Of a stretch of 64,000 nucleotides of DNA, positions 1,271 through 57,195 are shown piece after piece. The notes beneath the pieces were generated by a model. It made no database searches, was not told the DNA's origin, and worked only from the letters and a program-made list of their open reading frames with translations. The first letter of the stretch is position 1, and each line of letters begins with the position of its first letter. This stretch comes from Planctomicrobium piriforme (lineage in GTDB: Bacteria; Planctomycetota; Planctomycetia; Pirellulales; UBA1268), in assembly GCA_945869735.1 (NCBI GenBank), contig CAMBPQ010000007.1, positions 1 through 64,000 on the forward strand, read 5' to 3'. Made by a program: the position numbers and the translations under genes.

Positions 1271-4111
1271 ATGGCCAACGATCTACCTCGGGGTCTGACG
1301 ATGAACGCCGCGAGCCCCATGATCGCCACCAGCGCCGGACGACGCGAGCCGCCGGCACGTCCGCCGGTGCTATGGCACGCCATCGACCTCGACGGCGTCG
1401 TCACCCGTCTCGGGACCGATGTGCGAGGACTCACGTCGGCTGAGGCTACTCGACGGCTTACCGACCACGGCCCAAACGTACTCAACGAGCCGCCTCCACG
1501 GCCTTGGTGGCGGACCTTCCTCCGCCAGTTCAAGGAACTCGTCATCTGGATCCTCGTGGTGGCCGCTGTGATCGCCGGCGCCATGGGAGACTGGGCCGAC
1601 GCGGCGGCGATCGTGGCGATCGTGCTCGTCAACGCCATCATCGGCTTCCTGCAGGAGGAACGGGCACAGAAGGCCTTGGCCGCGCTGCAACGCATGGCGG
1701 CACCGCTGGCGCGAGTGGTCCGCGACGGCACGCCCGCGTCGATTCCCACGCGGGAGGTCGTTCCGGGCGACCGGATCGAACTCGAGGCTGGCGACCACGT
1801 GCCGGCCGATGCCCGGCTGATCGAGGCCTTCGGGCTCTCCGTCCAGGAGTCGGCGCTCACCGGCGAGAGCATGCCGGTCGATAAGTCGCCGGCGGAGCCC
1901 CTGCCCGCCGCCACCTCGCTCGGCGAACGGCTCTCGCTCGTGCACGCGGGCACAGTGATCGCAGCGGGCAGCGGCTCGGCCGTCGTCGTGACCACCGGCA
2001 TGTCAACGGAAATTGGAAAGATCGCCGGCATGCTGGAGCGGTCTCCACCGGAGCAGACGCCGCTCCAGCGCAGGCTGGCGGGACTAGGCCGAATCCTGGT
2101 CGCCGTCTGCCTCGCCGTGGTCGGGATGATCTTCCTGATGGAACTGATCCGCGGCGGCGGTCTCAGCGAACTCTGGCGGACGGGCAGGCTCGGGGACGTG
2201 CTCCTACGGGCGTTAAGCCTCGCCGTGGCCGCGGTGCCCGAAGGGCTGCCGGCGGTGGTCACGCTCGTGCTCGCTCTCGGCGTGCAGCGGATGGTGGCGA
2301 GGAACGCGCTCGTTCGCCGTCTGCCGAGCATGGAGACACTCGGCTCGGTGACGGTGATCTGTTCCGACAAGACCGGCACGCTCACCCGTAACGAGATGAC
2401 CGTCCGCGACGTCGTCACTGCCAGCCATCACTACCGCGTGACTGGTGTGGGCTACGAGCCCCGGGGCGAGTTTCTTCCGCATGATCCGGGCGACGGCCAT
2501 GCCGTCGTGCCTGCCGCCGAGCCCGATCTCCGCACCCTCCTTTGGATCGCGGCCCGCTGCACCACGGCTACGCTGCGGCCCGGGGCCGATGGCGGCGGCT
2601 GGCAGGTGATCGGTGATCCGACGGAGGGGGCCCTGGTCGTGGCCGCGGTGAAGGGAGGCGTGGCCGCGAGCGATCCTGCCGAACCGACCATCTTCGAGAT
2701 TCCCTTCGACTCCACCAGGAAGCGGATGAGCGTGGTCGTGCGGCTCGACGCGAAGCGGCGGATGCTGGCCACGAAGGGCGCCCCAGAGGCGGTCCTCGCG
2801 CACTGCGTTGCCGAGCAGTGGGACGGCCGGGTCGTGCGACTCACCGATGACCGCCGCCTGGAAATCCTGGCCGCGGCGGCCGCCCTCGCCGAGCAGGCGC
2901 TGCGGGTGCTGTCACTGGCGTGGCGTGACGTGCCAGCGGAGGAGTCGCTCGACGACGACCCGAGCCACGTCGAACGCGGGCTGGTGCACGTGGGCCTCGT
3001 CGGCATGCTCGACCCGCCCCGAGACGAGGCCCGCACCGCCGTGCAGCGCTGCCGATCGGCCGGCATCCGCCCCGTGATGATCACCGGCGACCATCCGGCG
3101 ACGGCGATGGCCGTGGGCCGCGAACTCGGGCTCGTCAGCCCGGGCACCGACCGCATCGTCACCGGCACGCAACTCGACGCCATGGACGACTCGGCAATCA
3201 CGACCGCGGCCGCCGAGACGGCCATCTATGCGCGGGTGTCCGCCGAGCACAAGCTCCGCATCGTGCGAGCGCTCCAGGGCCTCGGCAACGTGGTGGCGAT
3301 GACGGGCGACGGGGTCAACGACGCCCCGGCGGTGAAGGCGGCCGACATCGGGATCGCGATGGGGATCACCGGCACCGACGTCACCCGCGAGGCGGCCGAC
3401 ATGGTGCTCACAGACGACAATTTCGCCTCGATCGTCAGCGCGGTGGAAGAGGGACGGGGCATCTATGACAACATCCAGAAGTTTATGCACTACCTGCTCT
3501 CGTGTAATGCGGGAGAGGTGCTCGTGATGTTTGTCGCTGCCTTGGCCGGATGGCCCGCGCCCTTGGCCGCGATCCAGATCCTGTGGCTCAACCTCGTGAC
3601 CGACGGCCTGCCGGCGCTTGCGCTGGGCCTTGAGCCGCCGGAGCCCGACATCATGAACCGTCCGCCACGTCCGCCGCGGGAGCCGGTGATCCCGTGGGCA
3701 CGCGGCATCCAGATCGTCGCGCACGGAGTGATCGTGGCGGCGGTGGTGCTGTTCGCGTTTTGGATCACCTGGCAGGGTGATGAGGCCCGGCTACCCTTGG
3801 CCCGCACCGTGACGTTCTGTGTCGCCGCGTTCAGCCAGCTTTTCTTTGCCATCGGCTGCCGCAGCGACCGCTCGACCGCGTTTCAGCTGGGCTTCCTCGG
3901 CAACCCGGCCCTCCTCCTGGCCGTGGTCCTCTCGGGACTGCTTCAGGTCATTGTCGTCACGCTGCCGCCGACACAGCCGTTATTCGAGATCGACTCCACG
4001 CTCGGCCGCGAGTGGGGACTCGTGCTCGGACTGTCGCTCGTGCCGGTCACTGTCGTCGAGTTGGCGAAATACCTCGTCTGGCCGAGACCCCGCCCTGCTC
4101 AGACCTTGTAG
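1271..4111 (+). CDS. Cation-translocating P-type ATPase (P2-type, Ca2+-ATPase-like)
   Basis: 946 aa; TGES, PEGLPAVVTLVLALGVQRM, DKTGTLTRNEMT, TGDGVNDAPAVKAADIGIAMG, C-terminal cation ATPase region. Confidence 0.95.
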   Translation: MANDLPRGLTMNAASPMIATSAGRREPPARPPVLWHAIDLDGVVTRLGTDVRGLTSAEATRRLTDHGPNVLNEPPPRPWWRTFLRQFKELVIWILVVAAVIAGAMGDWADAAAIVAIVLVNAIIGFLQEERAQKALAALQRMAAPLARVVRDGTPASIPTREVVPGDRIELEAGDHVPADARLIEAFGLSVQESALTGESMPVDKSPAEPLPAATSLGERLSLVHAGTVIAAGSGSAVVVTTGMSTEIGKIAGMLERSPPEQTPLQRRLAGLGRILVAVCLAVVGMIFLMELIRGGGLSELWRTGRLGDVLLRALSLAVAAVPEGLPAVVTLVLALGVQRMVARNALVRRLPSMETLGSVTVICSDKTGTLTRNEMTVRDVVTASHHYRVTGVGYEPRGEFLPHDPGDGHAVVPAAEPDLRTLLWIAARCTTATLRPGADGGGWQVIGDPTEGALVVAAVKGGVAASDPAEPTIFEIPFDSTRKRMSVVVRLDAKRRMLATKGAPEAVLAHCVAEQWDGRVVRLTDDRRLEILAAAAALAEQALRVLSLAWRDVPAEESLDDDPSHVERGLVHVGLVGMLDPPRDEARTAVQRCRSAGIRPVMITGDHPATAMAVGRELGLVSPGTDRIVTGTQLDAMDDSAITTAAAETAIYARVSAEHKLRIVRALQGLGNVVAMTGDGVNDAPAVKAADIGIAMGITGTDVTREAADMVLTDDNFASIVSAVEEGRGIYDNIQKFMHYLLSCNAGEVLVMFVAALAGWPAPLAAIQILWLNLVTDGLPALALGLEPPEPDIMNRPPRPPREPVIPWARGIQIVAHGVIVAAVVLFAFWITWQGDEARLPLARTVTFCVAAFSQLFFAIGCRSDRSTAFQLGFLGNPALLLAVVLSGLLQVIVVTLPPTQPLFEIDSTLGREWGLVLGLSLVPVTVVELAKYLVWPRPRPAQTL

Positions 4112-5781
4112 CCGTTGCGGGTGACGTCGGGCTTCACGCCCTCGGGCGTCTCGTCGCTGGCGATGTCGAACCACTCGGGCTTGAAGTCGATCCGAGCCTG
4201 CGACGTCGGGTTGGCCAGCGCGATGTTGCTCACCAGGGCGATGACCGCGTCGGCGATCGCCACCTCCGGCTTGCACCGCGGCTGGTTTTCGGGCGACGGG
4301 TTGCGGATGCACCACGCCCAGTGCTCCATCTCCTCGGTGTAGCCGCGGGACGGGGCCGCGTCGGCGCCGCCTGCCTTGCCGCTGGCCGCGTAGCCACCGC
4401 CGCCGCTTTCCGTGGTGTCGAGCGTGGGCGAGCCGTCCTTCGCCTTCGCGACGGTCACGCGGGTGTCCTTCGATGAATCCTTGTAGAGCATCACGTCCCG
4501 CTCCTGCTCCAGCACGAGCGTGCCCTTCGTGCCCAGCACCACTTCACCGTAGCCGCCGAAGCCGTTGCCATTGATGGAGGAGTAGGTGACGACGATCTTT
4601 TTGTTTTTGTCGTCCTCGTATCCTGGCGCGGGATACTCATACATGCAGTAGACGTGGTCATCGATCTCGCGGTCGGCCGGAAAGATGCTCCGGTTGCCAA
4701 CGGCGGTTACCGTCAGCGGCTTCACCTTCTTACCCTGGCCGTGCATCGCCGATACAAAGATGCCGGCGGCGTCGAGTTGGTGGCTGCCCAGCTCGGCCAT
4801 CAGGCCACCGCCCGTGCGGTTCCAGAGCCGCCAGCGGACGAGCTCCTCCATTGGCGTGCGGGCCGATCCGTCGGGCAGGCTCATCTGCGTGTAGCCGAAC
4901 TTCGCGGCATCGAGCAAGGAGTCGGAGATTTGGGCCTCGAGCTGGGCGATTTTCTTCTCAAGCGGGTCGATGTCGGAGGGCTTCGCTGTTTCGAGGTCCT
5001 TCTTCCAGCCGGCGAGTTGCTTGGCAAGCGATGCGTCGTCGGGCATCGCCGGCTTCCACGAATCCTTGCCGGGCAGGTTGCCGCGGTGCCACTGGGCACG
5101 GATCGAGTGCAGGTCGCCGATGAGTTTGGCGGTGCCGATCGTATGGACGGCGTTGTCGTAGAGCATGCTGTAGTGCCGCTGATGCCCGGTCGCGAGAATC
5201 CTGCCGGTCTCCTGCGACACGCGGCCCATCTCCTTGCACTCATGCACGCTGTGGCCCATGAGCTTTTCGGTGAGCACGTGCTTGCCGGCCCGCATCGCTT
5301 TGATCGACGCCTCGGCGTGGAGGTGGAGCGGCAGCGCGATGATCACCGCCTCGACGTTCGGGTCGGCGAGCAGGTCTTCGTAAGCCGCGTAGATCTTCAC
5401 CTTCTCGCGGGCCGCATCCTCCGTCGACCACTTGTACTTCGCCATCAGCCCGGGGCGGGCCTGGTAGGCGCTGGGGCTGGAGACGTCACCGTGAAAGGCG
5501 CGGAAGACGTTGTAGGGCCGGATGTCGGCGATGGCGACGACGTTGAGGTAGTCGGGATTGTGGGCCCCGACGAGCACGCTCCCCTCGTCGCCCGTGCCGA
5601 GCACGCCGACGCGGAGTGGGTCGCCCACGCTCTTGCCGTAGCCAAAGTAGATCGAGCCCAGCCCGGCCCCGCTGGCGAGACCAGCCGCCACCGTGCCGGT
5701 GAGGAAGTCACGCCGCGTGATGGCGACGGCATCGTCAAAGTTTTCCTTGCCGATCGCCTTCTGCTGTTCGGTCAGGTTCAT
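4099..5781 (-). CDS. Gfo/Idh/MocA family oxidoreductase with twin-arginine signal
   Basis: 560 aa; TRRDFLTGTVAAGLASGAG Tat signal, RVGVLGTGDEG Rossmann motif, EKLMGHSVHECKEM. Confidence 0.92.
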   Translation of the reverse strand: MNLTEQQKAIGKENFDDAVAITRRDFLTGTVAAGLASGAGLGSIYFGYGKSVGDPLRVGVLGTGDEGSVLVGAHNPDYLNVVAIADIRPYNVFRAFHGDVSSPSAYQARPGLMAKYKWSTEDAAREKVKIYAAYEDLLADPNVEAVIIALPLHLHAEASIKAMRAGKHVLTEKLMGHSVHECKEMGRVSQETGRILATGHQRHYSMLYDNAVHTIGTAKLIGDLHSIRAQWHRGNLPGKDSWKPAMPDDASLAKQLAGWKKDLETAKPSDIDPLEKKIAQLEAQISDSLLDAAKFGYTQMSLPDGSARTPMEELVRWRLWNRTGGGLMAELGSHQLDAAGIFVSAMHGQGKKVKPLTVTAVGNRSIFPADREIDDHVYCMYEYPAPGYEDDKNKKIVVTYSSINGNGFGGYGEVVLGTKGTLVLEQERDVMLYKDSSKDTRVTVAKAKDGSPTLDTTESGGGGYAASGKAGGADAAPSRGYTEEMEHWAWCIRNPSPENQPRCKPEVAIADAVIALVSNIALANPTSQARIDFKPEWFDIASDETPEGVKPDVTRNGYKV

Positions 5782-5815
5782 GGGATCACCTTCGAGGGCT
5801 CGGCGTGCGTGAACG

Positions 5816-6757
5816 TTATGAGGGAGTGCCAGAGGGCGGCTTTGAGGCCCCACAGCACGAGGACAGCGGACACCACTGGCTGAGGAAATAGTCGAGGCCG
5901 CTCCAGCCTCCGGTGGGCAGGGCGGCGATGACGAGCAACGCCGCCACCTCCACCCATTGATCGTACGTGGGCTGGGCCCCAATGGCCCAAAAGGGCTGCG
6001 AGGCGATCACGCTGACCAGGAAAAACACCCCACCCATGGCGTTGAACTTGGCCAGCACCCCGAGCACGAGGCAGGCCCCGATCGTGACCAGCGACCAGCT
6101 GACGAACCGGTCGGCCCGCCAGAGCTTCGTCGGCTCGGCCGCCAATCCGGCACGGCTGCGGTCCGCATCGGACGGCAGTTGGGCATCCCACTCGGCCGTC
6201 AACTTATGGCCGATGGCCGCGGCGTCTTTCATCCAGCCGGCGGCCTGACCCCCGAGTTCCTTCTTTTTCTTGTTGACGCGTTCCCACTCGAAGGGAATCT
6301 CGGCGGCCCCGGGCTTCCGCTCCATGACGCCCAGACGGGCCACCTGGAGCCGGTAGTCGGTGAGGTCGTCTTCAAGGCTCTTGGCGTAGTCGGCCAGTTC
6401 CTCACGAGCGGCGGCGAGGCTCTTTTCAGCGGCGGTGCAGGCATCGGCCGCGAGCGGAACCTTTTTCATTCGGGCTTCGAGGAGCTTCTGCCAGCCAGCG
6501 ACAACCGTTCGCTGCCAGTCCTTCGAGACCTCGGCCGCGGGCCGGCCGTCGCGGGCACCGAGCGTGCCCGACCAGTCACCCGTCTGCGGCAGGCCTGAAC
6601 GATACAAGTCGGCAAGAGGGCCGACCGCCGCCTTGCGGAATCCGGCACTCGACCAATCGGGCTCGCGCAGATGGTTGAGGCCTTCGAGAAAGAAATGCAG
6701 GCCGCACATGATCCGAAGGAACGCGAGCGCTGCAATGGCGATGAGGGGAAGTCGCAT
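5816..6757 (-). CDS. DoxX-like membrane protein
   Basis: 313 aa from MRLPLIAIAALAFLRIMCGLHFFLEGLNHL; coiled middle region; C-terminal TM segments (LVTIGACLVLGVLAKFNAMGGVFFLVSVIASQPFWAIG). Confidence 0.72.
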   Translation of the reverse strand: MRLPLIAIAALAFLRIMCGLHFFLEGLNHLREPDWSSAGFRKAAVGPLADLYRSGLPQTGDWSGTLGARDGRPAAEVSKDWQRTVVAGWQKLLEARMKKVPLAADACTAAEKSLAAAREELADYAKSLEDDLTDYRLQVARLGVMERKPGAAEIPFEWERVNKKKKELGGQAAGWMKDAAAIGHKLTAEWDAQLPSDADRSRAGLAAEPTKLWRADRFVSWSLVTIGACLVLGVLAKFNAMGGVFFLVSVIASQPFWAIGAQPTYDQWVEVAALLVIAALPTGGWSGLDYFLSQWCPLSSCCGASKPPSGTPS

Positions 6758-6928
6758 GGGATTCCAAGCGGGGTTCGTCGGCAGCGGAGGGATGGGCCCG
6801 CGACCGATGTCCGGAAACATATTGAACCCTGAAACGGACCGGCGACAAGCCCACGAAAATCGGACCAAACGGAAAGAGCCATTGGAAAAGGCTTGCCAGA
6901 TTGGCGGCAACCCTGCGAAAACCCGGAA

Positions 6929-9006: not shown

Positions 9007-9033
9007 ACGCCTGCCAGCCTGCCACGCCTCCGA

Positions 9034-9268
9034 GGCCACTTTGGCAATCCTGTTCGGCACGAGAGGAGCTCGAAGGGGGCTTGAGTGGTGGGTCGGGGCT
9101 GCCCGTGCCCCATCGCCGGACGTGTACGCCGCCCGGATTCCCGTCGCTTGCGCTCTGGGCTTTTTGAGGGCCGGGGATCGCGTCCGACAAGAAGCCCCAA
9201 GCGCGAGCGCGGGGAAGACGGGTGGCATACCGATTCCTTCCGCGCCAAACAGGATCGCCACGGTGGCC
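9034..9268. repeat. MITE-like intergenic element with ~27-bp imperfect terminal inverted repeats enclosing a copy of repeat family 1
   Basis: 9034-9060 GGCCACTTTGGCAATCCTGTTCGGCAC pairs with the reverse complement of 9241-9268 (GGCCACCGTGGCGATCCTGTTTGGCGCG); internal inverted arms at ~9140-9170 and ~9187-9218. Confidence 0.75.
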
Positions 9269-9269
9269 T

Positions 9270-16650: not shown

Positions 16651-16654
16651 CGCG

Positions 16655-16690
16655 TTTGACAAAAACGGTGCCTGACACCGAATTGGGATC
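16655..16690. repeat. Short hairpin sequence with core GGTGcctgaCACC
   Basis: tttgacaaaaacGGTGCCTGACACCgaatt 5 bp after the gltX stop. Confidence 0.45.
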
Positions 16691-16734
16691 GAACTACCGG
16701 CGATCGACATTCACAGCCGGGAGACGTGCGCCGG

Positions 16735-16857
16735 CCTCAAGAAGCCCGGAGCGCGAGCGATGGGAAAGCGGGTGGCGACTGTGGGCGTGGCGGGGAGCGG
16801 GTTGGGGTGGAGGACGTCTTCCCCGCGCTCGCGCTTGGGGCTTCCTGACGGGAGGCG
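16735..16857. repeat. Dispersed repeat family 1, long hairpin copy (left arm-loop-right arm)
   Basis: Left arm TCAAGAAGCCCGGAGCGCGAGCGATGGGAAAG; right arm 16819-16853 CTTCCCCGCGCTCGCGCTTGGGGCTTCCTGACGGGA, imperfect reverse complements. Confidence 0.9.
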
Positions 16858-16918
16858 GCGCGGATGCGGGTGCCGCGGCCGTACGGCTCGCGCCGTTACG
16901 CTCTCTGACGGCACCACG

Positions 16919-28702: not shown

Positions 28703-28805
28703 CCTGCCGCGGCTCTCGCCGGCGTGTATGATCGGTCCGGTCGTCCGAGGCCCGGTGCCTGCCGCGGATGGTTGCTTTTCGCGGCACACCCCCGGAACCC
28801 GCCCC

Positions 28806-30146
28806 ATGCCCGCCCCCGATTCGAGGCCACCTCGCGGCCGTCCCTCCCGCCCCGCGTCGCAGGACCAGGGCCGAACGCCACCCCGTAGCGCTGGCGGTCG
28901 GCGGCCGTTTTCACGGAGCCGCGACGACCGGGAAGACCGGCCGCGTATTGCCGCTGCCGACGACGGGCTGGAGCGGCTGCAGAAGGTGCTGGCTGCGGCG
29001 GGCCTGGGCAGCCGGCGTTCCTGCGAGGAACTGATCACGACGGGACGCGTCGAGGTTGACCGGAAGGTGGTGACCACGCTCGGCAGTCGTGTCGATCCGC
29101 TCACCCAGGAGATCCGCGTCGACGGCGAGAGACTGCCGAATCCGAAGCGGGTCGTTTTCATGCTCAACAAACCGGTCGGGGTCGTCACCACCAACGTCGA
29201 CCCTGCGGGCCGGCCCCGCGTCGTTGATCTGGTGCCGGGCGACCTGCGGCTCTTCTCGATCGGTCGGCTGGACCGCATGAGTGAGGGATTGATTCTGCTC
29301 ACCAACGACGGGGGCCTCGCCAACCTCCTCGCGCATCCGCGGTATGGCGTGGAGAAAAAATACCTCGTGCAGGTCGCCGGTGTGCCCACCGAGGAGCTGA
29401 TCGACCGACTTCGCCGCGGCATCCGTCTGGCCGAGGGGGAGGTGCACGCGAAGCGGGTTTCGATCCGTTCGCAGCACAAGCAGAGCGCCGTACTCGAGAT
29501 GGTGCTCGACGAGGGCAAGAACCGCGAGATCCGCCGGATGCTCGCCAGCCTCGGCCACAAGGTGCACCAGTTGAAACGAGTTGCCGTCGGCAAGCTCTCG
29601 CTGGGAAACATCCTGCCCGGGCAGTGGCGGCAGCTCACGTGGAGCGAGATTGAGTCGCTGCGGCGTGACGCAATCGCGGAAGTTGGTGCCGACGCCGAGC
29701 GCGAGCCTGTGCGTCCGAGAGGACCGGAGCGAGGGCGGCGGCCAGGTGGCCCACCGCCGCGACGTTCGGGAGGCCCAGGACGGCCTGTTGGAGCAGGGCG
29801 GCCCACTGGAGCAGGGCGGCCCACTGGAGCGGGGCGGCCTGTTGGAGCAGGACGGCCTGTTGGAGCAGGGCGGCCTGTTGGAGCAGGGCGGCCCACTGGA
29901 GCAGGGCGGCCCACTGGAGCAGGGCGGCCCACTGGAGCAGGACGGCCCGTTGGAGCAGGACGGCCCGTTGGAGCAGGACGGCCTGCCGGGCCGGGAGGGA
30001 AGCCCCCTTACAGTCGTCCCACGGGTGATGAACCCCGCGGCACGGGTCGTGGCGGCAAGCCGGCACGTCCGATGCCCTTCAAACGTAAGCGTGCCGGCAA
30101 GGCGTCGTCGTGGCGAGCGAAGCCAGGTGAGCGAGGGAAAGCCTGA
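28806..30146 (+). CDS. rluB: RsuA/RluB family pseudouridine synthase with C-terminal hexapeptide-repeat and basic tail
   Basis: LERLQKVLAAAGLGSRRSCEELI (S4), LNKPVGVVTTNVDPAGRPRVVDLVP, GRLDRMSEGLILLTNDG; tail (GRP[V/T]GA)n. Confidence 0.9.
   Translation: MPAPDSRPPRGRPSRPASQDQGRTPPRSAGGRRPFSRSRDDREDRPRIAAADDGLERLQKVLAAAGLGSRRSCEELITTGRVEVDRKVVTTLGSRVDPLTQEIRVDGERLPNPKRVVFMLNKPVGVVTTNVDPAGRPRVVDLVPGDLRLFSIGRLDRMSEGLILLTNDGGLANLLAHPRYGVEKKYLVQVAGVPTEELIDRLRRGIRLAEGEVHAKRVSIRSQHKQSAVLEMVLDEGKNREIRRMLASLGHKVHQLKRVAVGKLSLGNILPGQWRQLTWSEIESLRRDAIAEVGADAEREPVRPRGPERGRRPGGPPPRRSGGPGRPVGAGRPTGAGRPTGAGRPVGAGRPVGAGRPVGAGRPTGAGRPTGAGRPTGAGRPVGAGRPVGAGRPAGPGGKPPYSRPTGDEPRGTGRGGKPARPMPFKRKRAGKASSWRAKPGERGKA
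29782..29995 (+). repeat. 18-bp in-frame minisatellite encoding ~12 GRP(V/T/A)GA hexapeptides
   Basis: Tandem cggcctgttggagcaggg / cggcccactggagcaggg units. Confidence 0.95.
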
Positions 30147-31027: not shown

Positions 31028-31059
31028 AACTCTGCGGCACTCGACCGCATTCGACTTTT

Positions 31060-31205
31060 GTGGACCGCCGGCTCGGGTGCGGCAAAAGTCTCGTCGCCGG
31101 GGCGAGGATACGCCCAAGGCTCCTCGAGCGTTCGCCGACCCCTGTGCCTCCCTCCTCCAAGCTGCCGGCTCGCCGCTCGACCAAAAGCAGATGCGCTTGA
31201 GCGAC
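31060..31205. repeat. Dispersed repeat family 2, copy A
   Basis: TCGTCGCCGGGGCGAGGATACGCCCAAGGCTCCTCGAGCGTTCGCCGACCCCTGTGCCTCCCTCCTCCAAG…; near-identical to 36631-36735. Confidence 0.85.
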
Positions 31206-31220
31206 ACGGCGCACGGCGAG

Positions 31221-31541: not shown

Positions 31542-31570
31542 TCCGAAATCCTCGAAAAGGGCGCTCGATA

Positions 31571-31632
31571 AAATGGGGGTCGGGAACGAACCCGACCGGA
31601 TAAAGTGGGGGTCGGGAACAGCCCCGACCGGC
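31571..31632. promoter_or_regulatory. Duplicated hairpin motif between rpsT and the upstream TPR gene
   Basis: Two ~31-nt tandem units, each with a perfect 7-bp stem: GGTCGGGaacgaaCCCGACC (31578-31597) and GGTCGGGaacagcCCCGACC (31610-31629). Confidence 0.6.
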
Positions 31633-36511: not shown

Positions 36512-36599
36512 CGCGTCGACTCACCCGCCGATTGGAGGCGGACCCGGCGGATGCGTTGAGAGCGCATCCAACTGACGTGTCTCGCCGGCTCGCGGGCGG

Positions 36600-36735
36600 C
36601 CAAAGTCGCCGCTGCGCGGTCCTGCGGATTGTCGCCGGGGCGAGGATACGCCCGAGGCTCCTCGGCCGTTCGCCGACCCCCTTGCCTCCCTCCCCAAGGT
36701 GCCGTCTTGCCGCTCTCACAAAAGAGGGTGCGTTT
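36600..36735. repeat. Dispersed repeat family 2, copy B
   Basis: TTGTCGCCGGGGCGAGGATACGCCCGAGGCTCCTCGGCCGTTCGCCGACCCCCTTGCCTCCCTCCCCAAG…; aligns with 31085-31200. Confidence 0.85.
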
Positions 36736-37807
36736 AGTTGGGGCTGGCAGGGCTTGTGCCGCCCTCGAAGTGGCGGCGGAGGTAACGGGCCCGTTCGATG
36801 TTGCGGTCCTTGGTGTCGAGTTCCACGCCCCGGAGTTTCTGGAGGTGGGCCGGCTGGGTGCGGATAAGGAGCGAGTTGATGTCGGCGATCTTGACGTCGC
36901 CGATCAGCCCCAAGAGCACTCCCATGCGGACCCGCGAGAGAAGCTGCATCGTTTCCTCGGCCGTGATCGTCTGCGCTGTCCGGAGGATGCCGTAGGCGCG
37001 GCTCACCTGGTCGTGGACGTTTTGCTGCGTCTCGCGTACGAGGAACTCCCGGGCCCGCCGCTCGTAGTCGATGAGCACGGGCACCACGTCTCCCACCTGC
37101 TCCACGAGTTCCTCCTCGGTCTTGCCGAGCGTGGTCTGGTTGGAGATCTGGTAGAAGTCGCCCATCGCCTGCGAGCCCTCGCCATACAGACCGCGGACGG
37201 CCAGCGAGATCTTGTGCAGGCTGCGAAACACCTTGTCGATCTGCCGCGTGATCACCAGCGCCGGCAGGTGGAGCATGACGCTGACGCGGATACCGGTGCC
37301 GACGTTGGTGGGGCAGGCAGTGAGATAGCCCCACCGCGGATGGAATGCGTAGGGCACCACGCGGCCGATCTGGTCGTCGACCACCTTGATCTGCTCCCAC
37401 GCCCCGCGGAGGTCGAGGCCGCTGTGCATGCACTGGATGCGGAGATGATCCTCCTCGTTGATCATCAGGCTGACTTGCTCAAGCCCGTCGATCGCGACGC
37501 CCCGCGCGCCCTGCGCATCGGCGTGCTCGCGGCTGATCAACTGCCTTTCGACGAGGAGCTGCCGATCGATCTCCTCCAGTCGTCCGACGTCGATGTATTC
37601 GAGCTGACTGCCGACGGGCGCTGCCGCGATCCGCTCACGGAGAAATCGCTCCGCTTCGGCGCGGTCCTGCTCCGACATCCGGCTGACGAACGGATGCTGC
37701 GCCACGTTGCGGGCGAGGCGGACGCGACTGCTCATCACGATGTCCGACTCCGGGCCGGTGCCGCGGAGCCATTCGCCAACGGCGTCGGTGAGTGAATCAA
37801 GTTTCAT
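36734..37807 (-). CDS. mcsB: Protein arginine kinase McsB-like (ATP:guanido phosphotransferase)
   Basis: DIVMSSRVRLARNVAQHPF, CPTNVGTGIRVSVMLHLPAL, VRGLYGEGSQAMGDFYQISNQTTLG. Confidence 0.95.
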   Translation of the reverse strand: MKLDSLTDAVGEWLRGTGPESDIVMSSRVRLARNVAQHPFVSRMSEQDRAEAERFLRERIAAAPVGSQLEYIDVGRLEEIDRQLLVERQLISREHADAQGARGVAIDGLEQVSLMINEEDHLRIQCMHSGLDLRGAWEQIKVVDDQIGRVVPYAFHPRWGYLTACPTNVGTGIRVSVMLHLPALVITRQIDKVFRSLHKISLAVRGLYGEGSQAMGDFYQISNQTTLGKTEEELVEQVGDVVPVLIDYERRAREFLVRETQQNVHDQVSRAYGILRTAQTITAEETMQLLSRVRMGVLLGLIGDVKIADINSLLIRTQPAHLQKLRGVELDTKDRNIERARYLRRHFEGGTSPASPN

Positions 37808-41001: not shown

Positions 41002-41004
41002 AGT

Positions 41005-41190
41005 GGTGGGCGTATTCCCCGCACTTGCGCTTGGGGCTTCCTGACGGGATGCGGTGCCGCGGGATGCCCTCAAGAAGCCCGGAGCGCGAGCGATGGGAAA
41101 GCGGGTGGCGACCGTGAGCGTGGTGTGGAGCGGGTTGGGGTGGTGGGCGTATTCCCCGCGCTCGCGCTTGGGGCTTCCTGACGGGATGCG
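41005..41190. repeat. Dispersed repeat family 1, compound copy (right arm; then left arm-loop-right arm)
   Basis: Right arms at 41017-41049 and 41154-41186; left arm at ~41069-41105. Confidence 0.9.
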
Positions 41191-41220
41191 GGAGACGTGG
41201 CGGGCGGTGCCCGTCGCGGG

Positions 41221-48448: not shown

Positions 48449-48458
48449 TCCACGGCTC

Positions 48459-49676
48459 ATGAACGATTGCTGCATCATTGGCGGGGGCATCATCGGGCTC
48501 TCGATCGCCCGGGAGCTCGCCGGCCGCGGCTTGTCCGTCCGAGTGCTGTCGCGGGACACGCGGGAGGAAATGGCATCCTGGGCAGCGGTCGGCATTTTTC
48601 CACCGGCTCCGACCGCGGCCGGCATGACGCCCGGGGAGGCGCTTACCGCCTGGAGCGACAGGCTCCATCAGGAGTGGGCACAGGAGCTTCTCGACGAGAC
48701 CGGAATCGACAACGGTCTGCGACGCTGCGGCGGCTTGCACGTGGCGGCCGACGACGCTGCCATGGAACGGGTGCGGCGGGAGGCCGGGAGTTGGCTCGCC
48801 AAGGGGGCGAGCTGCGAGGTGCTCGCCGCCGCCGCCCTTGCCGCCGCTGAGCCGGCCTTGGCCGGGGCGGTCGCGCGAGGTGCCGTTCGAGGCGCTCTGC
48901 TGCTCGCTGACGAGCACCAGTTTCGCTCGCCCCGTCAACTGCGGGCGCTCGAGCAGTCGTGCCTGAACCGTGGCGTCGTTCTTACCCGCGGGGCCGACGT
49001 CTCGACGATCTCGGTGGACGGCGGACGGATCACGGGAGTCGTCGCCGCCGTGGGGGGCGTGTCGGAGCGGGTCGAGGCGGCGGCCTATGTGGTGGCGGCG
49101 GGTGCCTGGTCGGGGCGGCTCGCGGAGGTGTTGGGCCTGTCGATCGACACGCGGCCGATTCGTGGGCAGATCGTGCTGCTGCGGCTGCCGCGACAACCGC
49201 TCACGCGGATCGTGAATCTTGGGCTCGACTACCTCGTGCCCCGCGAGGACGGCCACCTCCTCGTCGGCTCCACGCTCGAGGACGCGGGCTTCGTGCCGGT
49301 GCCGACCGACGCGGCGATCCGGCGGCTGCGCCGCGTGGCGGTCGACCTGCTCGGCGACGTGGCCGACGTGCCTCCCGAGAAGTCGTGGGCCGGGCTGCGG
49401 CCCGGGTCGCCCGACGGCCTGCCGTTCATCGGCCGCGTGCCGGCCCTCGCCAACGCCTTCGTCGCGGCCGGGCATTTCCGAGCGGGGCTTCACCAGTCGA
49501 CGGGCACGGCCGTGATGATCGCCGATCTCATCCAAGGCCGCATCCCGGAGGTCGACCCGGCGCCGTTCGCTCCTGGCCGGCGGGGCGGCCCACCCGGCGA
49601 CGACTCGGTGCCCGTGATGCTCGCCCGTGCCGCGGCGGAGGGCGCATCCCCCGCGCTCGCGCCTGGGGCTTCCTGA
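48459..49676 (+). CDS. FAD-dependent oxidoreductase (ThiO/DadA-like)
   Basis: CCIIGGGIIGLSIARELAGRGLSV; WAGLRPGSPDGLPFIGRVPALANAFVAAGHFRAGLHQSTGTAVMIADLI; C-terminus EGASPALAPGAS* lies in the repeat. Confidence 0.92.
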   Translation: MNDCCIIGGGIIGLSIARELAGRGLSVRVLSRDTREEMASWAAVGIFPPAPTAAGMTPGEALTAWSDRLHQEWAQELLDETGIDNGLRRCGGLHVAADDAAMERVRREAGSWLAKGASCEVLAAAALAAAEPALAGAVARGAVRGALLLADEHQFRSPRQLRALEQSCLNRGVVLTRGADVSTISVDGGRITGVVAAVGGVSERVEAAAYVVAAGAWSGRLAEVLGLSIDTRPIRGQIVLLRLPRQPLTRIVNLGLDYLVPREDGHLLVGSTLEDAGFVPVPTDAAIRRLRRVAVDLLGDVADVPPEKSWAGLRPGSPDGLPFIGRVPALANAFVAAGHFRAGLHQSTGTAVMIADLIQGRIPEVDPAPFAPGRRGGPPGDDSVPVMLARAAAEGASPALAPGAS

Positions 49677-49910
49677 CGAGAGGCACCACCCACGGTTGAT
49701 CCACCCGATTCCAGATCGTGAGGAGCCGGGGGTGGCACGCGCAGAAGCTGGGAATGTTTGCGACTCACGAGCGACAACCCGTCGGCCAGCCGAGCATCCT
49801 GTAGCAAAATCCCCGGCGCCGAGCATGTCACACCCGGCGAACCAATCCGGCACCGTTTCGATGCGACCCGTATTCCCCGCGCTGGCGCTTGGGGCTTCCT
49901 GACGGGAGGC
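49645..49910. repeat. Dispersed repeat family 1, two right-arm copies
   Basis: 49649-49681 CCCCGCGCTCGCGCCTGGGGCTTCCTGACGAGA and 49875-49907 CCCCGCGCTGGCGCTTGGGGCTTCCTGACGGGA. Confidence 0.88.
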
Positions 49911-49973
49911 CGCGCCGAGCATGTCAGCGCTGGCGGACCGGACGGATCGCGGGCGTGTTCGCAGCCTTTTCCG

Positions 49974-50633: not shown

Positions 50634-51250
50634 GGCGTTGCTCCAGAAACTCCGCCGCCGCCGAACGGCGGCGCGAACGACATCACCTCGCCGAGCGGTT
50701 CGACGCCGAGGGCCTCGAGGGTGACGGCCCACGTCGCGGGTGGTTCACGATTTCCCTTGCGGACGAGGATCGCGGCATCGCATCCGGCGCTGGCGACCAT
50801 GAGCCGTTGGCGGTGGATCCTGCCCGGGGGAAACCAGACGCCCGCATCGACCAGCATGATCCGCTTGCCGTGGGTGGGACCCGTCGCGTGGATGCCGGAA
50901 GAGTCGCAGGCGACAGCCTCGTGCCCGCGGCCATGAAGCGTACGAACGAGCGCGGCGACGATGGTCGTGCAACCGGCCCCGCGCTCGCAGGCGGCGATCG
51001 CGATTGCGTGGCGGCCGCGGCGGCGGGCGGATTCGATCACGTCGGCCAGGGACGACCACTCCGGCTTGGCCGCCTGCAGCAGCCGGTTGACGAGGTCGTC
51101 GTGTGCCGGATCAGTGCACCGTTCGAGGGCCGGCGGTGACGCGGCGGTCGGCGTCGAGGGGCTCATCGGGGCGGGCCGGTCCGCGTCTGCTGACGGCAGG
51201 ACCGCGTTCCAGCGCTCGATGAAAGCGTGATCGAGGAGATCGAGCGTCAT
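50630..51250 (-). CDS. BY-kinase/ParA-like protein with degenerate Walker A
   Basis: HAIAIAACERGAGCTTIVAALVRTLHGRGHEAVACD…RIMLVDAGVWFPPGRIHRQRLMVASAGCDAAILVRKG; ATGA overlaps on both sides. Confidence 0.7.
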   Translation of the reverse strand: MTLDLLDHAFIERWNAVLPSADADRPAPMSPSTPTAASPPALERCTDPAHDDLVNRLLQAAKPEWSSLADVIESARRRGRHAIAIAACERGAGCTTIVAALVRTLHGRGHEAVACDSSGIHATGPTHGKRIMLVDAGVWFPPGRIHRQRLMVASAGCDAAILVRKGNREPPATWAVTLEALGVEPLGEVMSFAPPFGGGGVSGATP

Positions 51251-51561
51251 CGCTGCAGGGTATCCGTCGTGGTCGTTGCGGGACGCATCCGGGCGAGCCT
51301 TTCCATTCGGCTGTGTTCGGCGCGGCGGCCGTCGTTCCAAGACGCGAGCGCCCAGACCACCGTTGCCATGACTGCCAGCGCCATGACCGAACCCATGGGA
51401 AAGCGGGTCCGTGAGGCCCTCGGCCTGCGGCAGGGGGCCGGCGTCGGGGCGGGCTTCACGGCCGTGACGGGCACGCCGTCTGCGGCCCCGGCCGCAGCCT
51501 GATCCGCCCCGATGTCTGGAATACGTGCGAGAACGTGCATCATCTCCCCTTGCGGTTCCAT
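51247..51561 (-). CDS. Small single-TM protein, first gene of the cassette
   Basis: 104 aa; TM FPMGSVMALAVMATVVWALASW; stop overlaps next gene start. Confidence 0.6.
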   Translation of the reverse strand: MEPQGEMMHVLARIPDIGADQAAAGAADGVPVTAVKPAPTPAPCRRPRASRTRFPMGSVMALAVMATVVWALASWNDGRRAEHSRMERLARMRPATTTTDTLQR

Positions 51562-51759
51562 CGTCGGCGATGCCGGATGCCCTTGAGCGACGCGCCGTCA
51601 GGGGGATGCCCTCTTCCCAGCCCTACGCCTCCGCGCCCGCCAATCGCGCCATAGAACCGTCGCAGTATGCCCCGTCCTCCGAGTCGCCTATGATCAGGCA
51701 GATCCAAACCACGGCGATTTTCCGCCATTCATGCCTTTTTCCAGCTTTTTGGACCGTCG

Positions 51760-54700
51760 ATGTCGACCAACTCTCCGTCCAGTCGTTCCGACCTTTTCCA
51801 CTCAGTGCTCGCTAGCCGGATCGCGATTCTCGACGGCGCCATGGGCACGATGGTGCACGCCCTTGGCCTCGATGAACAAGGTTTCCGTGGCGAGCGTTTT
51901 GCCGGACATCACCGCGACCTCAAGAACTGCATCGACGCCCTCACGCTCACCCAGGGAGACGCGATCCGGGGCATCCATGCCGCGTATCTCGAGGCGGGGT
52001 CCGACATCGTCGAGACCAACACGTTCGGTGCCACGAGCATAGCCCTGGCCGATTTCGGCCTTCAGTCGTATACGCGGGAGATGAACCTCGTCGCCGCCCG
52101 GCTGGCCCGCGAGGCGGCCGACGCGGCCACGGCGAAGACGCCCGACAGGCCCCGGTTCGTCGCCGGGTCGATCGGCCCCACCAACAAGCAGCTCTCCATT
52201 GCCGGCAACGTGTCCGACCCCGGCCACCGCGACGTGACGTTCGACGAGATGGTGGCGGTGTATCGCGAGCAGATCGAGGCCCTGATCGAAGGGGGCGTCG
52301 ACATTCTTCTCGCCGAGACGGCCTTCGACACGCTGGTGCTCAAGAGCTGTCTCCATGCCATCGAGCAGGTGTTCTCGGACCTTGGCAGGAAGCTACCGGT
52401 GATGGCCTCGTTCACCGTTTTCGACGGCGGTCGCACGCTCTCTGCCCAGACGGTGGAGGCCTGCTGGACCAGCATTTCCCACATCGATCTGGTGAGCGCG
52501 GGCATCAACTGCGCCCTCGGACCGGAGAAGCTCCGGACCCACGTGGCCGACCTGTCACGAATCACCTCGCGGCTCGTGAGTTGCTATCCCAACGCGGGCC
52601 TCCCCAACGCCCTCGGGGGCTTCGACGAGACGCCCAAAATGATGGCGAGCGTGCTCGAGGAATACGCCCAGTCGGGCTGGCTCAACATCGTGGGCGGCTG
52701 CTGCGGCACGACGCCGGCCCATCTCAGGGCGATCGCCGACGTGATGCGAAACTACCCGCCGCGGAAACCGGCGGATCCGCCGCGGCGGTCGCGGTACGCA
52801 GGCCTTGAGATGCTGGAACTGCGGCCCGAGAGCAGCTTCACCGTCATCGGCGAGCGGACCAACGTGACGGGGTCGCGGGCCTTCGCGCGGCTCATCCAGG
52901 AGGAGCGGTACGAGGAGGCACTCAGCGTCGCTCGCCAGCAGGTCGAGAACGGCGCCACCATCATCGATATCAATGTCGATGAGGGGATGCTCGACGGTGT
53001 CAAGGTGATGACGAAGTTTCTCACGCTGCTCTCGAGCGAGCCGGAGATCTCGAAGGTTCCGATCATGATCGACTCCTCGCGTTTCGAGGTGCTCGAGGCG
53101 GGGCTGAAGTGCGTGCAGGGGAAGGGGATCGTCAACTCGATCAGCCTCAAGGAGGGAGAGGAGAAGTTTCTCGAGCAGGCCCGCATCGTCCGCAGCCACG
53201 GGGCCGCGGTCGTGGTGATGGCGTTTGATGAGGAGGGGCAGGCGACCGACGTGGAGCGTCGGGTTGCGATCTGCCAGCGGGCCTACCGTCTGCTCACGGA
53301 GCAGGCGCACTTCCCGCCCGAAGACATCATCTTCGACCCCAACATCCTCACGGTCGCCACGGGCATCGAGGAACACAACCGCTACGCGATCAACTTCATC
53401 GAGGCCACGCGGCGGATCAAGGAGGCGATGCCGCTGGTGAAGGTCTCGGGGGGCGTGAGCAATATCTCGTTCTCATTCCGGGGCAACGAGGTCGTCCGCG
53501 AGGCGATGCACTCGGTCTTCCTCTACCAGGCGATTCGGGCTGGGATGGACATGGGGATCGTCAACGCCGGGCAACTGGCCGTCTACGAGCAGATCGATCC
53601 GCCACTCCGGGAACGGATCGAGGACGTGCTCTTCGACCGCCGGACTGACGCGACCGATCGCCTGATCGAATATGCCGAGACGGTCAAGCAAAGGGATCCG
53701 GCCGATGTCGCCAAGGCCGACACGTGGCGGAGCCTCGGTGTGGAGGAGCGGATCACACACGCCCTCGTGAAGGGGATTGCCGACTTCGTCGAGGAGGACG
53801 TCGAGGTGGCCCGGGGGCACTACGCCACGAGCCTCGAGATCATCGAGGGGCCGCTCATGCGGGGTATGCAGACCGTGGGCGACCTGTTTGGTGAGGGCAA
53901 GATGTTCCTGCCCCAGGTGGTGAAGAGTGCCCGCGTGATGAAGCGGGCGGTCAACCACCTCCTTCCCTCGATGGAGGCTGAGCGGATCGCGTCGGGCAAT
54001 GCTCAGACCAAGCGGGGCAAGGTGCTGATCGCCACCGTGAAGGGCGACGTTCACGACATCGGCAAGAACATCGTCTCCGTGGTCCTCGGATGCAACGGCT
54101 ACGACATGGTCGACCTCGGGGTGATGGTGCCGTGCAACAAGATCATCGAGGAGGCGATCCGCCACCAGGCCGACATCGTAGGCCTGTCAGGGCTGATCAC
54201 ACCGAGCCTCGACGAGATGGTGCAGGTGGCCCAGGAGTTTGAACACGCAAAACTGACGATACCGCTCCTGATCGGCGGGGCGACGACGTCGGCCCGGCAC
54301 ACGGCTGTGAAGATCGCCCCGAAGTATTCCGGTGCCGTGGTGCACGTCAACGATGCTTCCCGGGCAGCCAGCGTGGTGGAAAAGCTCCTCAGCCCGACGG
54401 CCCGGGAGGAGTTCTCGCGGGCCAATCGCGAGGCACAGACCCGCGACGTTGAGAACTTCAAGCGGCGGCAGGAGACCAAGCTCGTGCCTTATGCCGTTGC
54501 CTGCGGGAAGCGGTGGACGACCGACTGGGCCACGACGCCGATCGACGTGCCGGAGTTTCTCGGCGTGCGGACGCTCCAGAAGGTGCCGCTGACCGAACTG
54601 ATCCCGTTCATCGACTGGTCCCCCTTCTTTATGTCGTGGGAACTGAGGGGAAAGTATCCGGCGATTTTCAACGACCCGATCGTGGGCGTTGAGGCCCGGA

Positions 54701-55458
54701 AGCTCCACCGTGACGCGCTCGATCTGCTCGACCTGATCGTCCGCGACGACGCACTCGTGGCCAAGGGCGTGTATGGTTTGTTTGCCGCCAACTCGGTCGG
54801 CGACGACATCGCGGTGTTCACCGACGAGTCTCGGACCACCGAGATCGGCCGCGTGCACACGCTCCGGCAGCAGTGGGAACGGAAAGGACAGGACGTCTTT
54901 CACGCGCTGGCCGACTTCGTGGCCCCGGTGGAAAGCGGCCGCAAGGACTACCTGGGGGCCTTCGCGGTCACCGCCGGCCACGGCTGCGACGAACTCTGCA
55001 GGAAGTATGACGCCGAACTCGACGATTACTCGTCGATCATGGTGAAGGCGATCGCCGACCGGCTGGCCGAGGCCTGTGCCGAATGGCTGCATGCGAAAGT
55101 CCGCCGCGAGTGGGGCTACGGCCGCGCGGAGAGCCTGAGCCGCGAGGACATGATTGAGGAGAAGTATCGAGGCATCCGGCCGGCGCCTGGATATCCGGCC
55201 TGTCCCGACCATACCGAGAAACAGGCCCTGTTCGACTGGCTTTCGGTAGAGAAAGCCGCGGGAATGCGGCTCACGGAGAGCTTTGCGATGACGCCGGCGG
55301 CGAGCGTCAGCGGACTCTATTTTGCGCACCCGGAAAGCCGATATTTCGCTGTGGACCGGCTGACGCGGGAGCAGGTTGAGGCCTACGCAGCCCGCAAGGG
55401 GATGCCGGTCGCGGAGATCGAGCGGTGGCTCGCTCCGAATCTCGGCTACGACGCATAG
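51760..55458 (+). CDS. metH: Cobalamin-dependent methionine synthase
   Basis: 1232 aa; [75 protein letters not shown], activation domain. Confidence 0.97.
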
Positions 55459-55503
55459 TTGTGGGTGGGCCGTCCCACGGCTGACTGGGCGGTGGGAGGA
55501 ACC

Positions 55504-56472
55504 ATGGCTGATACTCCTGAGCCCCGCCGGCCGCGGACGCGGAAGATCCTGCTCAACGCTCCCCGCGTCGTCGAGGCTGTGGGCGGCACGAGCAGTCTCG
55601 TCGATCGCTTCCTCGACTATGTCCGGCACGAGCGGGCGCTCGCCGACAACACGCAGTCAGCCTACCGTCGAGATCTGCGGGACTTCGCCGCTTGGCTTGC
55701 CGGGCGGCCGGCGGCCTCCATGACGATTCGGGATCTCGGCGACTACTTCGCGGCGCTCACGAAGAAGGGTCTTGCCCGCGCGAGCGTGGCCCGGCAGGCT
55801 GCAACGCTGCGAACCTTCTACGCCTTTCTGCAACTCGAGGGCGTGATTGCTGAAAGTCCGGCGGAGTTGATCAAGGCCGCGAGGCGGGATGACAACATCC
55901 CGGGTACGCTGTCGCCGGCCCAGGTCGACAGGTTGCTCGCCAGCCCGGAGGGTGATGATCCGCGGGCTCAGCGTGACCGGGCGCTCCTCGAACTCCTCTA
56001 TGCGACCGGCTGCCGGGCTTCGGAGGTGTCAACGCTCCGGCTCACCGACGTGCACCTGGCAGAGAGTTTTTGCACCTGTCGCGGCAAGGGCAACAAGGAA
56101 CGCGTCGTGCCGCTCGGCCGCCGTGCGGTCGCGGCGACGTCGGCCTGGCTCAGCGACGCCCGCAAGACGTTTGCCGCCCGGGCGGGGGGCACCCCGTCGT
56201 GGGCTCTCCTCTCGGCGCGGGGCAACCGGCTCTCACGGATGCGGATTTGGGAGATCGTGCGGCTTCACGCCGACCAAGCCGGCATCCCGCCCGACATCGG
56301 TCCCCACACGCTGCGGCACAGTTTCGCCACGCACCTCGTGGCCGGGGGCGTCGACCTCCGCCACGTCCAGGAGATGCTCGGCCACTCGAGCATTGCCACC
56401 ACCCAGCGCTACACGCACGTCGACGCCAGCCGCCTCAAAGCCGTCCACGAGAAGTTTCACCCGCGGCGGTAG
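55504..56472 (+). CDS. xerD: Tyrosine recombinase XerC/XerD
   Basis: VDRFLDYVRHERALADNTQSAYRRDLRDF; ATGCRASEVSTLRL; HTLRHSFATHLVAGGVDLRHVQEMLGHSSIATTQRYTHVD. Confidence 0.94.
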   Translation: MADTPEPRRPRTRKILLNAPRVVEAVGGTSSLVDRFLDYVRHERALADNTQSAYRRDLRDFAAWLAGRPAASMTIRDLGDYFAALTKKGLARASVARQAATLRTFYAFLQLEGVIAESPAELIKAARRDDNIPGTLSPAQVDRLLASPEGDDPRAQRDRALLELLYATGCRASEVSTLRLTDVHLAESFCTCRGKGNKERVVPLGRRAVAATSAWLSDARKTFAARAGGTPSWALLSARGNRLSRMRIWEIVRLHADQAGIPPDIGPHTLRHSFATHLVAGGVDLRHVQEMLGHSSIATTQRYTHVDASRLKAVHEKFHPRR

Positions 56473-56479
56473 CGCGGAG

Positions 56480-56672
56480 CGAGTTGGGATGGAGGGCGTA
56501 TTCCCCGCGCTCGCGCTTGGGGCTTCTTGACGGGAATCGTGGCGTGAGGTCCCCAAGAAGCCCGAAGCGCGAGCATTGGAAAGCGGGTGGCGACCGTAGC
56601 GGTAGCGCGGAGCGGGTTGGGATGGAGGGCGTATTCCCCGCGCTCGCGCTTGGGGCTTCCTGACGGGAGCGT
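56480..56672. repeat. Dispersed repeat family 1, compound copy (right arm; left arm-loop-right arm)
   Basis: Right arms 56503-56535 and 56636-56668; left arm from ~56551; same architecture as 41005-41190. Confidence 0.92.
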
Positions 56673-56718
56673 GAACTCCAGCGCAGCCGTACGGCTCATG
56701 CCGTTGCGATTCGAGGTG

Positions 56719-57195
56719 TCAGCGCTTCTTCGGGGGGGCGAACTTGATCTTCTTGATCAGTTCCACGACCGTGCCATCGGGCTGCACCATCCCCGAGACG
56801 GCCGTGACCGCGCGGATCACATTTTCATACTTCAAGGTCGGGTCGCAATCGAGTTCGACCTCCGTCTTGTCGGCGTTGGAGCCGGGGCCGGTTCCCACGA
56901 GATCGATGATCCGCCGGCGGAGATCGTCGAAGTCGCCGACCTGCTGACCGTTCATCGTCATGCTCGTCCGCTCCCCCGATGGGCCGGCCGTCATCTTGAC
57001 GCGGACCGGTGGAATCAGATCCTCGGGGGCCGCTCCAGCGCTGGCGCCGAGCGGCATGCGGATGTCGAAGTCACCTTCGCTGATCACCGATTTGAGCGTG
57101 AGCATGAAAAACGTGATCAACTGAAAAACGACGTCGATCATCGGCGTCATGTCGATCGCGATTTTGTCGGACAGCGATTCGCGTTTCGCGGCCAC
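56719..57195 (-). CDS. ExbD/TolR family protein (likely GTG start)
   Basis: KIAIDMTPMIDVVFQLITFFMLTLKSV; GTG at 57195 follows GGAG; an upstream start at 57234 would overlap the previous gene. Confidence 0.9.
   Translation of the reverse strand: MAAKRESLSDKIAIDMTPMIDVVFQLITFFMLTLKSVISEGDFDIRMPLGASAGAAPEDLIPPVRVKMTAGPSGERTSMTMNGQQVGDFDDLRRRIIDLVGTGPGSNADKTEVELDCDPTLKYENVIRAVTAVSGMVQPDGTVVELIKKIKFAPPKKR

What the first reader, a model, noticed from the sequence alone, without database searches (positions are those of the whole stretch)
4099..56719. Bimodal convergent gene junctions: every wide tail-to-tail spacer is filled by a dispersed repeat
I listed every + to - junction between confident genes. 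Five are tight: 4111/4099 overlap by 13 bp; 11817/11831, 24157/24167, 35652/35666 and 43205/43211 have gaps of 13, 9, 13 and 5 bp. Seven are wide: 9006/9270, 16650/16919, 31027/31221, 36511/36734, 41001/41221, 49676/49974 and 56472/56719, with gaps of 193-297 bp. All seven wide junctions contain repeat family 1 or 2, and none of the tight ones does. I found no clear copy in a divergent or same-strand spacer. This suggests the repeats act as, or are tolerated only as, 3'-end insulators such as bidirectional terminators or BIME/REP-like elements, or that they insert specifically into transcription-termination hairpins.
Basis: partly seen in the sequence, partly recalled or inferred. Interest (0 to 1): 0.85.

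Follow-up and report, generated by a model that had tools for sequence, protein, structure and literature searches.

The report
Mobile repeats widening gene-end junctions
In this planctomycete genome most wide gaps between two genes that end facing each other hold small mobile repeats, and related genomes show that several of these gaps were nearly zero bases long before the repeats inserted, so gene ends act as harmless landing sites for at least two unrelated kinds of mobile DNA.

Summary
All twelve convergent junctions are at the stated coordinates; the seven wide ones carry a repeat, the five tight ones none, and no same-strand or divergent window spacer has a copy. In 1.23 Mb of the host genome, dispersed repeats occur in 74/88 convergent, 91/157 same-strand and 16/103 divergent gaps of at least 150 bp. 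So copies are not exclusive to convergent gaps; in same-strand gaps they hug the upstream stop codon. In related genomes several of the same junctions are 0-55 bp and repeat-free, so insertion made the bimodality and no terminator had to be there first. Family 1 (339 copies) is a REPIN-like inverted pair; the genome has one divergent RAYT-like gene, resembling "class 3" TnpA_Y1, flanked by exact family-1 copies. All nine such genes in the genus are flanked by their own repeats, tagged NAAG instead of GTAG. Family 2 (123 copies) looks like an IS630-type MITE inserting at the TA of CTAG; its terminal TAG is often the neighbouring gene's stop codon (29 of 41 abutting genes; 17% elsewhere). Best reading: unrelated mobile elements accumulate where insertion does no harm. 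A terminator or insulator role is not supported but not excluded.

The parts
9183..9220 (-). family-1 unit, type A; an inverted type-B-like unit lies at about 9135-9172, the two folding into one hairpin
   Evidence: HMM hit; fold z -4.9 for 9140-9222
16735..16860 (.). family-1 inverted pair (type B at about 16737-16766 on the minus side, type A at 16815-16856 on +) in junction 16651-16918
   Evidence: HMM hit, inverted-repeat list, fold z -2.2
31041..31200 (+). family-2 element, about 160 bp, degenerate TIRs, in junction 31028-31220; the same junction is 3-40 bp in five relatives
   Evidence: HMM hit 31049-31200, end alignment, orthologous junctions
36558..36737 (+). family-2 element with an internal 21-bp insertion; its 3' end includes the stop codon (TAA) of the minus-strand gene 36734-37807; junction is 1 and 12 bp in G047 and G050
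   Evidence: left end read from the sequence
41011..41052 (+). family-1 unit, type A, in junction 41002-41220 (also occupied in G044, 52 bp and repeat-free in G050 and G037)
   Evidence: HMM hit; orthologous junctions
41065..41101 (-). family-1 unit, type B, inverted partner of both neighbouring type-A units
   Evidence: HMM hit; fold z -4.5 and -4.8
41148..41189 (+). family-1 unit, type A
   Evidence: HMM hit
49643..49684 (+). family-1 unit covering the last codons and stop codon of the FAD-dependent oxidoreductase gene 48459-49676; relatives encode a different C-terminus
49692..49910 (+). family-3 composite (about 213 bp with inverted arms) ending in a family-1 unit at 49869-49910; origin of family 3 unresolved
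   Evidence: 61 hits in the sample; HMM hits
56497..56538 (+). family-1 unit, type A, in junction 56473-56718 (20 bp in G047); inverted type-B-like unit at about 56549-56585
   Evidence: HMM hit; fold z -5.2 for 56495-56585
56630..56669 (+). family-1 unit, type A
   Evidence: HMM hit

Best explanation
The wide convergent spacers are tail-to-tail junctions, originally only about 0-50 bp long, that received insertions of small non-autonomous mobile elements. Family 1 is a REPIN-like inverted pair of short palindromes, most likely mobilised as single-stranded hairpin DNA by the RAYT-like HUH enzyme encoded outside the window at G000:C8:52251-52745, whose gene is flanked by the same repeats. Family 2 is a MITE of an IS630/Tc1-mariner element that inserts at the TA of CTAG; when that TA belongs to a TAG stop codon, the element's own terminal TAG keeps the stop codon in place and the gene stays intact. 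Copies elsewhere (coding sequence, promoters in divergent spacers, upstream regions of genes) are presumably removed by selection. Unrelated elements therefore pile up at gene 3' ends, and convergent junctions, with two 3' ends and no promoter, fill most often. Shown: the junction-class bias, tight repeat-free orthologous junctions, the RAYT-like gene with matching flanking repeats, the CTAG/TAG association. Inferred: that the RAYT-like enzyme moves family 1, that an IS630 transposase moved family 2, and that selection rather than targeting empties the other sites.
For: Class bias repeated in G044 and G042. Residual convergent gap after removing repeats has a median of 20 bp, like repeat-free gaps at 17.5 bp. 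Six of ten repeat-bearing convergent junctions with a comparable relative are at most 55 bp in at least one relative; examples. RAYT-like gene between exact family-1 copies, with own repeats on both sides in 9 of 9 genomes and an invariant NAAG tag in 17 of 17 units. Family-1-rich genomes all carry the gene (4 of 4, against 5 of 18 others; p = 0.017). Family 2: C before and G after the TA; TAG stops in 29 of 41 abutting genes against 17% elsewhere (OR 12, p = 1e-13); orthologous protein in G042 ends at the same residue with TAG and no element; ends shared with IS630 transposase loci. Free CTAG sites are 54% coding, yet family 2 is almost absent from genes.
Against: No transposition was observed and no intact IS630 copy with both ends was found in the host. 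The RAYT association rests on few genomes, not corrected for shared ancestry. In several relatives a junction is wide without families 1-3, so not every junction shows a clean empty site. For same-strand spacers the relatives gave little evidence of tight ancestors (1 of 8). Family 3 is unexplained.
Confidence: 0.78

Rival explanations
1. The repeats are kept because they work as bidirectional terminators, mRNA 3'-end stabilisers or supercoiling insulators between convergent genes; mobility explains their origin but function explains where they stay.
For: Location at gene 3' ends; family-1 pairs fold into long hairpins far better than shuffles (z -4.5 to -5.2 in four of five pairs). Roles of REPs/BIMEs in termination and mRNA stability are proposed in the literature (PMC3733652).
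Against: Turnover between species at the same junctions and many junctions of 5-35 bp without any element; no U-tract and no excess of terminator-like sites in the stretch scanned; family 2 does not fold better than shuffles (z 0.6); copies in same-strand gaps show no strand bias.
Confidence: 0.15
2. Both families insert preferentially at gene 3' ends (target choice, not selection).
For: Family 2's CTAG target overlaps TAG stop codons; stop-abutting copies are 34 of 91 classified elements.
Against: More than half of free CTAG sites lie in coding sequence, where family 2 is nearly absent. Families with different mobilisers share the placement. No target motif at gene ends was found for family 1 (not searched systematically).
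Confidence: 0.2
3. The repeats insert specifically into pre-existing transcription-termination hairpins.
For: Location at transcription ends only.
Against: Unoccupied junctions of 0-35 bp have no spacer hairpin, and family 2's target is CTAG.
Confidence: 0.02

Closest known systems
REP/BIME/REPIN with RAYT (TnpAREP), as in E. coli, Pseudomonas, Stenotrophomonas (PMC3116915, PMC3686654, PMC8266576)
   Same: Short imperfect palindromes in hundreds of copies, outside genes, in inverted pairs that form a long hairpin; one HUH-Y transposase-like gene flanked by cognate repeats; repeats and enzyme vary together between genomes.
   Different: The 5' tag is NAAG, not GT(A/G)G. The enzyme is divergent: 24.5 bits to Pfam Y1_Tnp and below cut-off for the NCBIfam RAYT model.
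Class 3 TnpA_Y1 proteins (PMC6006769), mainly Planctomycetes and Acidobacteria
   Same: About 165-175 aa, HVH motif, Y----Q motif, conserved N-terminal region, planctomycete distribution, flanked by atypical hairpins that can be abundant in the genome.
   Different: That paper gives a CnGA foot; here NAAG precedes the hairpin in all 17 units. Direct sequence comparison with the published class-3 members was not made.
GTAG- and CGTC-tagged REPs (PMC3733652)
   Same: Preference for convergent and same-strand over divergent spacers, close to the 3' ends of flanking genes, head-to-head dimers.
   Different: Family 1 has neither tag at the hairpin foot and its stem does not start with AT.
IS630/Tc1-mariner MITEs
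   Same: Terminal inverted repeats flanked by TA, preference for CTAG (known for IS630: Tenzen and Ohtsubo 1991, title in the reference list of PMC2170065), left end shared with IS630-type transposase loci.
   Different: Strong association with in-frame TAG stop codons; no intact autonomous copy with both ends seen.

Membership tests
REP/REPIN-RAYT system (for family 1) | High-copy short palindrome located outside genes | tested here: met
   339 copies; 0 of 162 sampled copies wholly inside genes
REP/REPIN-RAYT system (for family 1) | Inverted doublets forming a hairpin | tested here: met
   43 of 46 adjacent pairs are inverted A/B pairs; folds
REP/REPIN-RAYT system (for family 1) | 5' tetranucleotide GT(A/G)G at the hairpin foot | tested here: not met
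   NAAG in 17 of 17 units from nine genomes
REP/REPIN-RAYT system (for family 1) | HUH-Y gene flanked by cognate repeats | tested here: met
   G000:C8:52251-52745 and eight relatives
REP/REPIN-RAYT system (for family 1) | Enzyme cleaves the repeat as single-stranded DNA | not testable with these tools
   needs biochemistry
Class 3 TnpA_Y1 (for the RAYT-like gene) | HUH and Y----Q motifs, about 178 aa | tested here: met
   H95-V-H97 and Y159....Q164 invariant in nine sequences; motif description
Class 3 TnpA_Y1 (for the RAYT-like gene) | Flanking hairpins with CnGA foot | tested here: not met
   NAAG foot instead; which strand the authors used was not checked
CGTC-tagged REP (for family 1) | CGTC at the foot and stem starting with AT | tested here: not met
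   CGTC or CCTC occurs a few bases upstream in the host but not in the other genomes, and the stem starts with CCC
IS630/Tc1-mariner MITE (for family 2) | Terminal inverted repeats flanked by a TA duplication | tested here: met
   TAGAGCGCAT.../...ATGCGCTCTA ends; C before, G after. The duplication itself is inferred, no base-level empty site was available
IS630/Tc1-mariner MITE (for family 2) | Shares ends with an autonomous IS630-type element | tested here: inconclusive
   Left ends match at transposase remnants in five genomes; right ends not resolved

The most novel reading that the evidence does not exclude
Two unrelated systems converge on gene ends by different routes: a class-3-like RAYT with NAAG-tagged REPINs whose insertions survive only at 3' ends, and an IS630-type MITE for which TAG stop codons are self-repairing target sites, so that one element can supply the stop codons of both convergent genes (as at L279). 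Tail-to-tail junctions would then be standing landing sites for mobile DNA, and their lengths a record of insertion history.
Probability: 0.5. Interest if true: 0.6.

Novelty: new variant of a known kind. Interest (0 to 1): 0.5.

Why it matters
The 3'-end preference of REPs is long known and often read as a sign of RNA function. Here related genomes supply repeat-free versions of the same junctions, and elements with unrelated mobilisers share the same sites, which favours harmless insertion over function. It also offers a setting (nine genomes, each RAYT-like gene paired with its own repeats) in which the poorly characterised class-3 HUH enzymes can be tested, and a concrete rule, CTAG at TAG stop codons, for an insertion that leaves a gene intact.

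Tried and rejected
Pfam PF01797 search for a RAYT in the host was negative and at first suggested that none exists; a relative's protein as query then found it, so the negative was a sensitivity failure. CGTC-tagged REP membership: rejected. Rfam: only a tRNA in the window. Terminator scan: no excess in the stretch scanned. Automatic detection of NAAG hairpins around 45 planctomycete RAYT loci was too noisy to use: controls fired in 29 of 45, and it missed the G044 and G042 units. Target duplications beyond TA for family 2: none evident by eye. A family-2 end pattern in G042 gave no hit because the ends differ there; fetched copies then showed the G042 variant. Contig ends in G042 that stop inside family 2 first looked like a longer element; they appear to be assembly breaks at near-identical copies. 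The whole genome was not available as a file, so stretches covering 39% were used. A PDB sequence search with the RAYT-like protein found nothing. Three literature searches for insertion at stop codons by such elements found nothing relevant.

Full report
1. The observation. The seven wide ones carry family 1 or 2 and the five tight ones do not. None of the 15 other window spacers of at least 150 bp holds a copy, against 7 of 8 convergent ones (p = 3e-5). An eighth wide convergent junction (28703-28910) has weakly supported genes and no repeat. Width and presence of a repeat are partly the same fact, so the tests below look at junction class and at history.

2. Genome scale. The window is part of contig C7 of a 3.17-Mb, 128-contig genome, 95% complete. 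Family 1 has 339 copies of its 23-base core (up to 3 mismatches, none for the reversed control), family 2 has 123. In 1.23 Mb (39% of the genome), de novo repeats cover part of 74/88 convergent, 91/157 same-strand and 16/103 divergent gaps of at least 150 bp; G044 gives 19/25, 20/48 and 1/34, and G042 7/9, 11/27 and 0/12. Same-strand copies sit at a median of 31 bp from the upstream stop and 118 bp from the next start, without strand bias. No start codon lies inside a family-1 or -2 hit and no family-1 copy lies wholly inside a gene. The rule is 'gene 3' ends', with convergent junctions as its extreme case.

3. History. With repeat bases removed, repeat-bearing convergent gaps have a median of 20 bp, like repeat-free ones at 17.5 bp. 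Orthologous junctions show it directly: 31028-31220 (193 bp) is 3, 3, 25, 35 and 40 bp in five relatives; 36512-36733 is 1 and 12 bp in two; 49677-49973 is 0 and 13 bp in two; 56473-56718 is 20 bp in G047. The reverse occurs too: a 1-bp junction of the host is 371 bp with a family-1-like pair in G042, and a 26-bp one is 128 bp with a copy in G044. Overall 6 of 10 repeat-bearing convergent junctions with a comparable relative are at most 55 bp in at least one of them. Where relatives are wide without families 1-3, the spacers often show other palindromic sequences by eye. So the two gap sizes are junctions with and without insertions.

4. Family 1. Two unit types, A (AAGCCCCAAGCGCGAGCGCGGGGAA) and B (AAGCCCGGAGCGCGAGCGATGGGAA), occur as inverted A/B pairs (43 of 46 adjacent pairs), 77 bp apart in one orientation, and pairs fold into one long hairpin. 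A Pfam search found no RAYT in the host, but the G042 protein found one at C8:52251-52745 (2e-54), between exact family-1 copies at 52190-52212 and 52796-52818. In all nine genomes of the genus with this gene it is flanked on both sides by inverted repeats, which differ between genomes except in close pairs. All 17 units examined have NAAG directly before the hairpin. The four genomes with at least nine family-1 copies all have the gene; 13 of the other 18 lack it (p = 0.017, not corrected for shared ancestry). Motifs and distribution match the 'class 3' TnpA_Y1 proteins of PMC6006769, described there as rare and of unknown behaviour, with a CnGA foot. The AG of NAAG equals the two tag positions whose change abolished cleavage in one GTAG system (PMC8266576); that is a lead, not a test.

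5. Family 2. It is about 160 bp with ends TAGAGCGCAT.../...ATGCGCTCTA, with C before and G after the terminal TA, which fits insertion at the TA of CTAG. Its left end resembles sequence upstream of IS630-type transposase remnants in five genomes. IS630 is known to prefer CTAG (title cited in PMC2170065). Of 41 genes abutting family 2, 29 stop with TAG against 17% elsewhere (p = 1e-13), and the TAG is the element's own end. For C11:56110-57408 the G042 protein ends at the same residue with TAG and no element. In G042, whose copies are near-identical, 7 of 18 ends are in-frame stop codons, and at L279 both ends serve the two convergent genes.

6. Why gene ends. Elements with different mobilisers share the placement. 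Of free CTAG sites, 54% lie in coding sequence, where family 2 is nearly absent. This points to loss of harmful insertions, with family 2's target adding a bias of its own. A terminator or insulator role for the family-1 hairpins is possible but not needed, and turnover between species argues against necessity.

7. Known or new. The REP preference for convergent and same-strand over divergent spacers is published (PMC3733652), and the safety of convergent gaps for insertion was argued in PMC1525189. Added here: repeat-free versions of the same junctions, the NAAG tag with a class-3-like RAYT paired with its own repeats in nine genomes, and the stop-codon association of the IS630-type MITE. No paper on the last point was found, which is weak evidence because most subscription journals are not held.

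8. Limits. Gene calls are home-made (their stop codons, on which most counts depend, are the safer end). The sample is the longer contigs, not random. Only one close relative exists in the collection (G044, about 87% mean protein identity), so target duplications could not be read base by base. The origin of family 3 is open.

Noticed in passing
window 28703-28910: A possible thirteenth convergent junction, 208 bp without any dispersed repeat, between weakly coding ORFs that match no Pfam family.
   Followed up: partly
window 49692-49904: Family 3: a repeat of about 213 bp with inverted GCCGGGTGTG-type arms that often ends in a family-1 unit; 61 hits in 1.23 Mb; also expanded in G044 and G037. 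Origin unresolved.
   Followed up: partly
window 31567-31630: Two tandem 32-nt units, each a hairpin, between same-strand genes; terminator-like on the minus strand.
   Followed up: no
window 29740-30039: Twelve overlapping register copies of an 18-nt tandem repeat inside a minus-strand ORF.
   Followed up: no
window 57092-57156 and 57549-57613: Two adjacent genes share a 65-nt stretch at 88% identity, probably paralogues side by side.
   Followed up: no
G042, G047, G051 orthologous junctions: Other palindromic repeats fill the same convergent junctions in relatives, e.g. GCACAGGTTTTCAACCTGTGC and CCCAACGCCGTGAGGCGTGGG types.
   Followed up: partly
G000:C8:52251-52745: The RAYT-like gene is missed by the Pfam model in the host, so surveys by PF01797 will undercount these enzymes.
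   Followed up: yes
G044:C65 near 65599 and 78365: Family-2 ends with another repeat family apparently nested inside them, next to TAG stop codons.
   Followed up: no
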